From Candidatus Tectimicrobiota bacterium (GTDB lineage: Bacteria; Tectomicrobia; Entotheonellia; Entotheonellales; Entotheonellaceae): 64,000 nucleotides of DNA. Within the stretch, counting starts at the first letter, position 1. Each line of letters begins with the position of its first letter. The stretch is from positions 248,001-312,000 of the forward strand of contig BPKO01000001.1 of the NCBI GenBank assembly GCA_026005175.1, read 5' to 3'. Under the pieces are notes generated by a model. It worked only from the letters and a program-made list of their open reading frames with translations. It was not told the origin of the DNA and did no database searches. Position numbers and translations under genes: made by a program. This document shows, piece after piece, positions 15,449 to 22,368 of this stretch.

Positions 15449-15655
15449 ATGTCTCAAAGACCAGGCGACGTCCTGACCATCGACGAGTTGTCTGCCTACT
15501 TGAAGATACCCAAATCGACGCTCTACAAGCTCGTGCGGGAAGGCAAAGTCCCATGCCAGAAGATAGGCCGCCACTGGCGCTTCCGCAAGGAAGCCATCGA
15601 CCGCTGGTTGGAAGAGACGCCCGGCGATACGAAAGACGGAAGACAGGAGGCATGA
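15449..15655 (+). CDS. Excisionase/AlpA-type helix-turn-helix regulator, copy B
   Basis: The encoded 68-residue protein is identical to copy A; the one base change (ATT to ATA) keeps isoleucine. It heads the longer, BREX-3-like version of the cassette and its stop overlaps the brxF-like start (ATGA). Two identical regulators with matching promoters would be expected to control both cassettes together. Confidence 0.8.
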   Translation: MSQRPGDVLTIDELSAYLKIPKSTLYKLVREGKVPCQKIGRHWRFRKEAIDRWLEETPGDTKDGRQEA

Positions 15656-16116
15656 CAGAGCCCTTGGCCGATCAGGTCCTGCAAAAGCTCGGAGAGGCTC
15701 GCGCGCTTTACTACCGCCTGCTTCTGGTAGTGGCCCTGGCGGGAAGTGGCAAGACCTCCGCCCTGCAGGCGGTGTCGGCCTTGACTTCTGCCCCGCTCCT
15801 CAACGTCAATCTCGAGCTCTCTCGCCGCATGCTGGACCTGCCCGAACGAAGGCGGGCTCTGCAGCTGCCGCGGCTGTTACAGGATCCGTTGCGGTTGCTG
15901 CAAAAAATATCCCGCTATAAGACCATCGTGGCGGCGTGGCCGGGCGAAGTCGTCGATCCCGACGTGGCGTGTGGAAGAGAAGACACACGACGCACGACAC
16001 CTGACGCGGGACGGTATTTGACCTACGCCGCGGCAGACCACCCCGAAGACCGCCGCTACCCGATTCGTGATGTTCTGGTGGTGAGTCCGGGTGGGCTTTC
16101 CGGCAGACAGGGGTGA
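15652..16116 (+). CDS. brxF: BrxF-like small P-loop ATPase (BREX-3 type), internally altered
   Basis: ADQVLQKLGEARALYYRLLL, then ALAGSGKTSALQAV (Walker A), APLLNVNLELSRRMLDLPER and RRALQLPRLL, then QDPLRLLQKISRYKTIVAAW, YLTYAAADHPE and a RRYPIRDVLVVSPGG ending match BrxF of BREX type 3. Compared with my recollection of the family, a stretch of about 25 residues that should hold Walker B is missing between PRLL and QDPL. A stretch of about 19 residues (PDVACGREDTRRTTPDAGR) is extra after GEVVD. The Walker A first glycine is alanine here. The frame is open for 154 residues, but ATP hydrolysis is doubtful. Confidence 0.7.
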   Translation: MTEPLADQVLQKLGEARALYYRLLLVVALAGSGKTSALQAVSALTSAPLLNVNLELSRRMLDLPERRRALQLPRLLQDPLRLLQKISRYKTIVAAWPGEVVDPDVACGREDTRRTTPDAGRYLTYAAADHPEDRRYPIRDVLVVSPGGLSGRQG

Positions 16117-16123
16117 CGACGGT

Positions 16124-19100: not shown

Positions 19101-21273
19101 GAGCGGCACCGACTGCAAGGCAGCCTCGAGAAGAAGCTCGAAAAGCTAGCGACTCTCAAGGCTTGGCAGGCATTCTTCCGGCGGTTGGACGACCGGACGG
19201 AGCAAAGCCTCACAGCTTGGACGAAAGCAGTTGCCCGTATCGGAAAGGGAACGGGCAAGTCCGCCTATCGGCACCGGCGCACAGCCCGTCAGTATCTCAT
19301 GTCCTGCATTCCGAGGATACCGGCCTGGATCATGCCCCTGCATAAGCTCTGGGAGACGACGGATCCGACCCCGGGTGTATTCGATACCGTAATCGTGGAT
19401 GAGGCTTCCCAGGCCGGAATCGAGGCGCTGGTGCTATTGCTTCTGGCGAAACGAATTATCGTTGTCGGCGACGATAAACAGAACAGCCCCGAGGCAGTGG
19501 GCGTGCTCGAAGACGACATCGCGGGTCTCGCGCGCGATCATCTTGGGCAGTTTCGATTCCGCGCCGAGTTTCGGCCTGATACAAGTCTCTATGATCATGC
19601 CGAACGCGCCTTCGGGAACCTGATCTCGCTTCGTGAGCACTTCCGCTGCGTACCCGAGATCATTCGTTTTAGTAACGACCTGTGTTATACAGATGCGCCC
19701 TTGATCCCGTTGCGCCAGCCTCCTCCCAACAGATTGCCGCCGCTGCAAGCTGAATTCGTGGCGGGAGGCAAGTGCGAAGGCGAAGGCCAGCGAATCCTCA
19801 ACCGTGCTGAGGCAGAGGTAATCGTGGAGAGAATTCGAGTGTGCCTCGATGACGAGGCTTACGAAGGCAAGACCATGGGGGTCATCGTCCTACAGGGTCA
19901 CGCCCAGGCCGAGCTGATTGAAAAGAGACTTGCCGAAGTACTTGACCCGAGGGTTCGTGCGGAGAGGAAACTCCGCTGCGGAGTGCCTGCTACTTTCCAG
20001 GGCGACCAGAGGGACGTGATCTTCTTGTCGCTCGTCGTCGCGCCTAACCACCATTTTAGAGCGTTGACAGGGTTACCCGATCAGCGTCGCTTCAACGTTG
20101 CCATGAGCCGCGCGAGAGACCAGGTGTGGCTGTTTCACAGCGTTCAACAGCACGACCTCAGCCAGGAAGATCTGCGCTGGCGACTTCTGAACTTCTTTTA
20201 CGGGGCAGGTCAGCAAGAACTTGGGGTGCTTTACGAGGAAGTAGATCGCTTGGAGCGGGAAGCAAAACGCCGTTCGCGACAGCCAGGCGAGCAACCAGAT
20301 CCTTACGAAAGCTGGTTTGAGGTGGACGTTGCGCTTGAGTTATTACGGAGAAGGTTCCGGATCCGACCGCAAGTTGACGTAGCGGGCTATCGTATTGACC
20401 TGGTAGTCGAAGGACTCGTCAATCGGCTGGCCGTGGAGTGTGATGGCGAAGCCTGGCACGGACCCGAGAGATTTGAGCAGGACATGGCCCGCCAGCGGCA
20501 GCTTGAGCGCGCCGGGTGGACGTTCGTGCGCATCCGGGAGTCGGAGTTCTATGCGGACCGAGAAAGTGCGGTACGGCGGATTGTCGAGGCATGTGAGGAA
20601 CTGGGTATTCGGCCGATCGGAGAGGAAGAACGGGAGATAGACGAGGAACCAGAGGAACGCGCGAAAGAAAAGGAACAAGGCGAATCTGGGAAAGCTGAAG
20701 AGGAAGCTCTGGATAAGACTAAAGGGGACCGCGGACCTATGGCCTTAGCGGAGTATTCCGCGGAATTGGCCTACCCTGACCCACGGGAAGCTTCTGCCAC
20801 CAACATTCAGGCGGCTCTGCGGCGGATAATCGAAAGGGAAGGGCCCACTGACGAAACGCTTCCTTATCAAGCTTTACGTCGCGGGCTGTCCCGCTTTGAA
20901 CCGTGCTGGCAAAGCCGTGAGGAGCCTGCTGAATAGAGCCTTGTACAGTATGCAAAGGGCGGGAGAGATTGTCGTTGAGGACGAGCTTGGTGATCGGTCG
21001 CTTGAATCACAGGTCGTGAGGCTTGCAGGGACGCCTAGGGTCAGAGAGAGGCCTGCGGGCGAGCGGGACTTGTTGGAGATCCCTCCTTCAGAAATTTTGT
21101 CTGTACTTGCACGCTTATCTCCGCGCTCAGATTGTGGGGTTCAGTACGATGAGGATTTGGCAAGGAAATTGCTCGAACACTATGGTTTTACGAAATTGAC
21201 TCAGCGTCGCCGAGAATACATACAACGAGTTATGCGGATTCGTAGATTACAAGCTACTCCGTCCGGAGAATAA
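16124..21273 (+). CDS. COG1112-type SF1 helicase with Vsr/DUF559-like nuclease domain; several +1 frameshifts
   Basis: Huge protein of about 1,710 residues. Order: N-terminal region of unknown fold; AAA_11 with [15 protein letters not shown] (near 17380); long coiled-coil insert; motif [11 protein letters not shown] (near 19395); [12 protein letters not shown]_12 with [14 protein letters not shown] and [10 protein letters not shown]; a PD-(D/E)XK Vsr-like domain, [20 protein letters not shown] and [13 protein letters not shown] (20340-20560); an acidic linker; and a C-terminal winged-helix-like part. Frame breaks at about 16766, 16905-16909, 17030, 17218-17221 and 20895-20897 are all single extra bases, and each removal restores continuous sequence. 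It lies 8 bp after the brxF-like stop and 20 bp before the brxC-like start. Confidence 0.8.
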
Positions 21274-21292
21274 TGCGAAGGGGCCAGATGCA

Positions 21293-22368
21293 ATGCGATA
21301 TGGAGACCTGATCCAGTGCGAGCCCATCGAGTCCGTAGTCCAGCTACGGGATGCCGATGAGGCCGCCAAGGCCGGTCAGCTTCTCGGCCATCTCGTCGGA
21401 GATGACATAGGTGCTGACCAGCTGTCTGGCGCTTGTGATCCCCCAGCTTCAGTTCGACCAGCCCGTCGATAACAAGGGGCTGCTTGTCGTGGGCAACTAC
21501 GGTACCGGCATACCTGATGTCGGTGATCTCCAGCATCGCCGAGCACGCGGACCTGCTTTCCGCTCTGGGCAACGCACAGGTGGCACAAGCCGCGGAGCGC
21601 ATCGCCGGCAAGTTCAAGGTGGTCCGCACCGAGATCGGGGCTATCACCATGTCGCTGCGGGACATCCTCACAGGCTCGCTGGAGGAGAGTCTCTCCGCCA
21701 TGGGCGTGACCGACACCTTTCCGGATGCCAGCCAGGTCCCCAACAACAAGCGGGCCTTCGCGGAGATGATGGCCGCGTTCCACCAGGCCTATCCGGACCA
21801 TGGCCTGCTCCTGGTCGTGGATGAGCTGCTGGACTATCTCCGCACCCGCAAGGACGTAAAGTTCGTCGTCGCCGAGCGCCTGCTCAAGAAGACCGGCGAG
21901 CAGCAGGCCAAGATCCGCGAATACCTCACACCGTTCGCCAAGTTCTACGGCCGCATGAACGAAGTCCCGCGTATCGCGTCAAACATCGAGCGTCAAGAAG
22001 AAAAAGACACAAGACGCATGACGCACGACCCGGAGACGGGATCCTCCGGCATCGAGGATCTGGGTGGAGACCCGGCCGACGACCTCCTTTCCCAGGTGGA
22101 AACGGTCCTGCGCGAGATCCACAAGATGGTCAGCGGCCAATTCATCTCCTCCAACCCGGACAACCGACAGTTTTACCTCGACCTCAAGAAGACCGGCGAC
22201 TTCGACACGCTCATCGAGAGGCGCGCCGAGAGCCTTGATGCCTCCCAGCTCGACCGCTACGACTACGAGGCCCTGAAACGGGTCATGGAGTGCACCGATC
22301 AGACCTGCGTCACCGGCTCTCGTGTCTGACAGCACGAGCTGGAACGGCTGGAGGGCGAGGCGGCGTAA
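21293..22368 (+). pseudogene. brxC: DUF6079/BrxC-like AAA+ ATPase, heavily deleted remnant
   Basis: Starts [20 protein letters not shown], the normal N-terminus of this roughly 1,200-residue family, with an upstream AAGGGG. A short segment is then inverted (separate entry). [20 protein letters not shown] and NYGTG lead to the P-loop, where the KSH codons are lost. Next come [20 protein letters not shown] and [17 protein letters not shown], then deletions join [20 protein letters not shown] and the C-terminal [20 protein letters not shown]. The last conserved tryptophan codon is TGA (22327-22329); the original end is the TAA at 22366. Only about a quarter of the gene remains. Large in-frame losses cannot be read errors. 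Confidence 0.75.
21368..21424 (-). other. 57-bp microinversion inside the brxC-like gene
   Basis: Read on the minus strand this segment encodes [19 protein letters not shown], the sequence expected in the plus-strand protein between the DADEAA and VIPQLQFD blocks. On the plus strand it gives unrelated residues. GGTCAGC (21373-21379) and GCTGACC (21413-21419) form a 7-bp inverted repeat near the edges, a likely site of the inversion. Confidence 0.75.

What the first reader, a model, noticed from the sequence alone, without database searches (positions are those of the whole stretch)
15652..22368. COG1112 helicase-nuclease gene nested between brxF-like and brxC-like genes
A 1,710-codon SF1 helicase with a Vsr-like nuclease domain starts 8 bp after the brxF-like stop and ends 20 bp before the brxC-like start, each with its own ribosome site. 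That spacing suggests an operon member rather than a random insertion. Standard BREX-3 has no such gene here as far as I know.
Basis: partly seen in the sequence, partly recalled or inferred. Interest (0 to 1): 0.7.

Follow-up and report, generated by a model that had tools for sequence, protein, structure and literature searches.

The report
Helicase-nuclease gene inside decayed BREX-3
A large helicase-nuclease gene, probably a self-sufficient anti-phage gene, sits between two genes of a BREX-3 anti-phage operon; one other bacterium has the same order, but in this genome the BREX operon is a wreck and the helicase gene reads with five frame shifts.

Summary
The gene order is real: excisionase-type HTH, brxF, SF1 helicase with Vsr-like nuclease, brxC (DUF6079), on one strand with small gaps. 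The claim of one 1,710-codon reading frame is wrong: five single-base insertions break it, and the longest piece is 1,255 codons. Both flanking BREX genes are remnants: brxF lacks part of its P-loop domain; brxC lost Walker A, carries a 53-bp inversion and keeps under a third of its length. No PglZ was found in the genome.

A Blastocatellia MAG (L012) has the same order with an uninterrupted 1,718-aa helicase-nuclease, and its genome holds the end of a BREX-3 operon (PglZ, BrxA). So the nested order exists outside this wreck. In ten other BREX-3 loci brxF lies next to brxC. In 46 of 47 other loci the helicase-nuclease has no BREX neighbour.

Best reading: a free-standing defence gene (PADLOC PDC-S37 class, distantly related to Hhe and ProA) embedded in a BREX-3 operon as an accessory nuclease. 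Here it kept its motifs and constraint while the host operon decayed. No clear insertion scar was found. Whether the five shifts are real or sequencing errors is unresolved.

The parts
15449..15655 (+). small excisionase-family HTH gene (HTH_17 type, MAD1-like) that leads the operon, also in BREX-3 loci L012, L071, L067 and L124
15652..16116 (+). brxF remnant: lacks the segment with LLDNIEILFDV and carries an in-frame filler of about 17 codons
16124..21273 (+). SF1 helicase - Vsr-like nuclease gene (PDC-S37-like), broken by five +1 shifts at 16774, 16905, 17025, 17222 and 20841
17169..20936 (+). longest open piece (1,255 codons) with Walker A, DEAS, GDDKQ, motif VI and the ECDG nuclease motif all intact
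21294..22365 (+). brxC (DUF6079) remnant, residues about 1-210, 245-286 and 426-531 of about 1,240, with stops and frame changes
21383..21435 (-). 53-bp stretch of brxC inverted in place (96% identical to L012 on the opposite strand)
10335..10572 (+). second scrap of brxC (about residues 450-531), in two frames

Best explanation
The gene is a free-standing anti-phage helicase-nuclease: an N-terminal recognition domain, a UPF1-like SF1 motor, a Vsr-like PD-(D/E)XK nuclease and a winged helix. It became embedded between brxF and brxC of a BREX-3 operon, where it was co-transcribed and supplied an extra nuclease. It most likely loads on invading nucleic acid through its N-terminal and winged-helix parts, translocates with ATP and cuts, acting alongside BREX rather than as a BREX subunit. 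In the window genome the BREX genes have decayed beyond function while the embedded gene kept its motifs and its constraint; it is either still active (the five shifts being sequence errors) or only recently broken. Shown: order, domains, motifs, decay of brxF and brxC, a second genome with the same order, free-standing relatives. Inferred: anti-phage role, co-transcription, substrate, division of labour with BREX.
For: Domains and motifs; nearest named families are anti-phage ProA and Hhe and candidate PDC-S37; UPF1, SEN1, SMUBP-2 and DNA2 among solved relatives; free-standing in 46 of 47 loci and DUF6079 absent from 12 of 13 genomes with homologues; nested with an intact frame in L012, whose genome also has PglZ and BrxA ends; ten loci with brxF next to brxC; brxF and brxC decayed here and no PglZ; amino-acid to silent singletons 51:68 in the window against 57:75 in L012.
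Against: No functional data. Only one other nested case, and its brxF also has an in-frame deletion of about 40 residues. The window gene does not read through as sequenced. Defence role rests on distant homologues far below the curated cut-offs (227 of 1500 bits for ProA, 131 of 2000 for Hhe).
Confidence: 0.6

Rival explanations
1. BREX-3 subtype: the helicase-nuclease is a true component of a rare BREX-3 variant, made together with BrxF and BrxC and working with them as their nuclease arm.
For: Same slot in two genomes with collinear alignment through both junctions; 4-bp overlap with brxF in L012; nuclease effectors are often embedded in BREX loci (PMC12839542).
Against: Nearly always free-standing; genome co-occurrence near chance; ten BREX-3 loci lack it between brxF and brxC; brxF is internally deleted in both nested loci; the gene kept its constraint while brxC here decayed.
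Confidence: 0.15
2. Pseudogene cluster: the whole block is a dead relic in this genome, the helicase-nuclease included, and tells only of past defence.
For: Five shifts in the gene; decayed brxF and brxC; other split defence genes in the island.
Against: All five shifts have the same sign and three lie in G or C runs, there is no nonsense substitution, motifs are intact and substitution pattern equals that of the intact L012 gene.
Confidence: 0.2
3. Assembly artefact: the helicase-nuclease was wrongly joined between brxF and brxC.
For: The genome is a partial assembly (77% complete, rpoC not found) and the locus is scrambled.
Against: The same order and the same brxC leader in an independent MAG.
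Confidence: 0.03

Closest known systems
BREX type 3 (brxF-brxC-pglXI-brxHII-pglZ-brxA)
   Same: HTH-brxF and the start of brxC flank the gene; brxC start up to 87% identical to other BREX-3 loci
   Different: A helicase-nuclease lies between brxF and brxC; in the window brxF and brxC are broken and PglZ is absent
PADLOC candidate PDC-S37 (single gene)
   Same: Best PADLOC model over helicase, nuclease and C-terminal region (189-216 bits)
   Different: Here inside a BREX-3 operon; the N-terminal region is poorly covered; PDC-S37 is only a candidate and no held paper names it
Anti-phage proteins ProA and Hhe (NCBIfam NF058533, NF042953)
   Same: SF1 helicase, Vsr-like nuclease and, for ProA, C-terminal region
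   Different: Scores far below the cut-offs (227 of 1500, 131 of 2000); N-terminal parts not matched
Mokosh MkoA/MkoC
   Same: Related SF1 helicase core (108-124 bits)
   Different: From memory Mokosh pairs the helicase with a PLD nuclease or kinase; here it is a Vsr-like nuclease
Auxiliary nuclease effectors embedded in BREX loci (PMC12839542)
   Same: Extra nuclease gene between core BREX genes
   Different: The main text names PD-(D/E)XK fusions to SF2 helicases and ATPases; an SF1-Vsr gene in the brxF-brxC slot is not mentioned

Membership tests
BREX type 3 (functional system in this genome) | intact brxF and brxC | tested here: not met
BREX type 3 (functional system in this genome) | PglZ present | tested here: not met
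   (genome 77% complete)
BREX type 3 (functional system in this genome) | BrxHII, PglXI and BrxA present | tested here: inconclusive
   the window SNF2 fragments fit HmaA better than BrxH; tblastn with BREX-3 reference proteins found no other parts in the window; the rest of the genome was not searched for them
PDC-S37 (PADLOC candidate) | match to the PDC-S37 profile over helicase, nuclease and C-terminal region | tested here: met
PDC-S37 (PADLOC candidate) | protects cells from phage | not testable with these tools
   needs plaque assays
Anti-phage ProA / Hhe | score above the NCBIfam cut-off | tested here: not met
UPF1-like SF1 helicase | Walker A, DEAS box, GDxxQ, motif VI | tested here: met
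MTES_1575 Vsr-like nuclease | Pfam match over cut-off with the catalytic motif kept | tested here: met

The most novel reading that the evidence does not exclude
A rare BREX-3 subtype whose operon carries its own SF1 helicase - Vsr nuclease between brxF and brxC, working with the BREX complex as its cutting arm and able to survive as a solo defence after BREX is lost.
Probability: 0.15. Interest if true: 0.6.

Novelty: new variant of a known kind. Interest (0 to 1): 0.38.

Why it matters
How BREX stops phage, and which nuclease it uses, is still debated. A natural case in which a complete helicase-nuclease is built into the BREX-3 operon, and a genome in which that guest seems to have outlasted the host operon, give a direct way to ask whether embedded nucleases act with BREX or on their own. 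It also cautions that a fixed place in an operon need not mean a shared machine.

Tried and rejected
Insertion scars: direct and inverted repeats at the junctions are no longer than in shuffles (window 7 bp, reached in 218 of 300 shuffles). L012 has an 8-bp direct repeat GATGAGGA at both ends (69 of 300 shuffles reach that length), suggestive only. Internal promoters or terminators: no more than in shuffles. Tree: window, L012, L010, L011 and L015 form one clade (100/100), but its inside is unresolved, so one insertion or two cannot be told. Genome-level association with BREX-3: 8 and 9 of 297 genomes, overlap 1, near chance. Error rate of the assembly: rpoC not found, so that test gave nothing; ORF lengths elsewhere vary widely. 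N-terminal domain: confident model (pLDDT 85) but no convincing PDB match (Foldseek best E 0.67; best Z 4.8), which does not show a new fold. A viral-contig scan for brxC gave one more plain HTH-brxF-brxC locus, and a scan for the shared leader gave none. The first idea that the SNF2 helicase downstream is BrxHII was dropped, because HmaA fits much better. PDC-S37 is not named in any held paper.

Full report
OBSERVATION. The three genes are there, in the stated order and strand. brxF-like is 15652-16116, the helicase-nuclease 16124-21273, and brxC-like starts at 21294, with gaps of 7 and 20 bp. The helicase part matches AAA_11/AAA_12 and the nuclease part MTES_1575 and DUF559. MTES_1575 is described as a Vsr-fold REase in PMC3710099, so 'Vsr-like' is fair. 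The statement that it is one 1,710-codon ORF is wrong. The longest open piece is 1,255 codons. Against three relatives the gene has exactly five single-base insertions, at 16774, 16905, 17025, 17222 and 20841; three of these are in runs of G or C. No frame-breaking deletion or nonsense substitution was seen inside the gene.

THE FLANKS ARE REMNANTS. The window brxF matches BrxF models in separate stretches and lacks the 'LLDNIEILFDV' segment of intact BrxF. brxC keeps only residues about 1-210, 245-286 and 426-531 of about 1,240. A 53-bp stretch (21383-21435) is inverted in place, and a 5-bp deletion destroys Walker A. About 170 bp and about 416 bp of brxC are missing further on. A second scrap of brxC lies at 10335-10572. 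Behind brxC the SNF2 helicase matches HmaA (123 bits) much better than BrxHI/HII (44 bits), and no PglZ was found in the genome. BREX-3 cannot work here as sequenced. The inversion and the long deletions are not sequencing noise.

IS THE NESTED ORDER SEEN ELSEWHERE? Yes, once. Contig JALSQX010000050.1 (Blastocatellia MAG, L012) reads HTH, brxF (119 aa, itself with an in-frame deletion of about 40 residues), an uninterrupted 1,718-aa helicase-nuclease overlapping brxF by 4 bp, then brxC with its conserved start at 8924, until the contig ends. Window and L012 align collinearly over 5.9 kb across both junctions and share the leader AAGGGGCCANNTGCAATG in front of brxC. Another contig of the same genome ends inside a PglZ gene (73% identical to PglZ of L078 over 144 residues) followed by a BrxA-like gene. 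So the nested genome has at least these further BREX-3 parts; whether they belong to the same operon is not shown.

WHAT IS NORMAL? In ten BREX-3 loci, brxF lies directly next to brxC: L067, L068, L071, L072, L078, plasmid loci L093-L096 and viral contig L124. The helicase-nuclease has no BREX neighbour in 46 of 47 other loci examined, although some flanks are short and two loci are near-duplicates. DUF6079 is absent from 12 of 13 genomes with homologues. In 297 genomes of L012's phylum, 8 have the gene, 9 have DUF6079 and one has both. In two viral contigs the gene is coupled by a 4-bp overlap to an HTH gene of the same excisionase type that leads BREX-3, and a third locus (L121) has such an HTH just upstream.

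ONE INSERTION OR TWO? Silent divergence (dS) between window and L012 is 0.51 in the HTH gene, 0.73 in brxF, 1.42 in the helicase-nuclease and 0.12 in the start of brxC. The start of brxC is also the closest part between L012 and the plain locus L067 (0.26, against 1.26 in brxF). So the start of brxC has been exchanged between lineages or is unusually constrained, and the block is a mosaic. The tree leaves window, L012 and free-standing L010, L011 and L015 unresolved. No transposon ends or clear target duplications were found. A single old insertion with later recombination and repeated insertion in the same slot both fit.

IS THE WINDOW GENE ALIVE? All motor and nuclease motifs are intact. Amino-acid to silent singletons are 51:68 in the window and 57:75 in intact L012, so there is no sign of relaxed selection. 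brxC next door shows pN/pS of 0.7 against 0.26 for the helicase-nuclease. Five shifts of the same sign, mostly in homopolymers, look like sequence errors or very recent loss. The tools could not decide.

MECHANISM. Established knowledge: UPF1-like SF1 motors move along single-stranded nucleic acid with ATP, and PD-(D/E)XK nucleases cut. The C-terminal region is weakly DUF3320-like (winged helix), and the N-terminal 398 residues are a well-predicted domain without a found match. The nearest named proteins are anti-phage ProA and Hhe and the candidate PDC-S37, so a defence role is the most likely one. The steps of recognition, movement and cutting are inferred. In BREX-3 it would be an auxiliary nuclease of the kind catalogued by PMC12839542, whose main text names SF2-helicase and ATPase fusions but not this architecture.

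VERDICT. A real, rare arrangement and a new variant of a known theme, embedded accessory defence genes. It is not a general BREX-3 component, and there is no working BREX operon around it in this genome. Interest is moderate.

Noticed in passing
window 22636-30960 and 40930-50488: A broken Hma system (HmaA, HmaB, HmaC pieces) with a HEC-01A-like gene lies around the CRISPR genes; HmaA-like pieces occur both at 22636-24578 and 49865-50488.
   Followed up: partly
window 31646-40919: A type III-D CRISPR-Cas effector set (Csx1/Card1-like, Cas10, Cas5, Cas7 genes) sits between the HmaB and HmaC pieces; one Cas7 gene is split over two frames (38317-39618 and 39402-40919).
   Followed up: no
window 15980-15998 and 22004-22029: A short repeat (GACRCAHGACGCAYGAC) fills the lesions of both brxF and brxC and occurs nowhere else in the genome.
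   Followed up: partly
window 58208-62931: A type III restriction-modification pair; the methyltransferase is cut in two by an in-frame stop at 59261-59263.
   Followed up: no
window 50529-53268: A Ppl-like defence gene split over two frames.
   Followed up: no
L026 9786-9971, L027 7906-8094: In two viral contigs an excisionase-type HTH gene overlaps the start of the helicase-nuclease gene by 4 bp.
   Followed up: partly
L011 7237-16074: A homologue of the helicase-nuclease lies between what look like dnaA and dnaN, near a probable replication origin, in a Terriglobia MAG; gene names judged from the sequence only.
   Followed up: no
window 13930-14784: A YhcG-type PD-(D/E)XK nuclease gene just upstream of the BREX remnant.
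   Followed up: no
L067 about 5023-5105: A GC-rich palindromic repeat is inserted in frame inside brxF of the plain BREX-3 locus.
   Followed up: no
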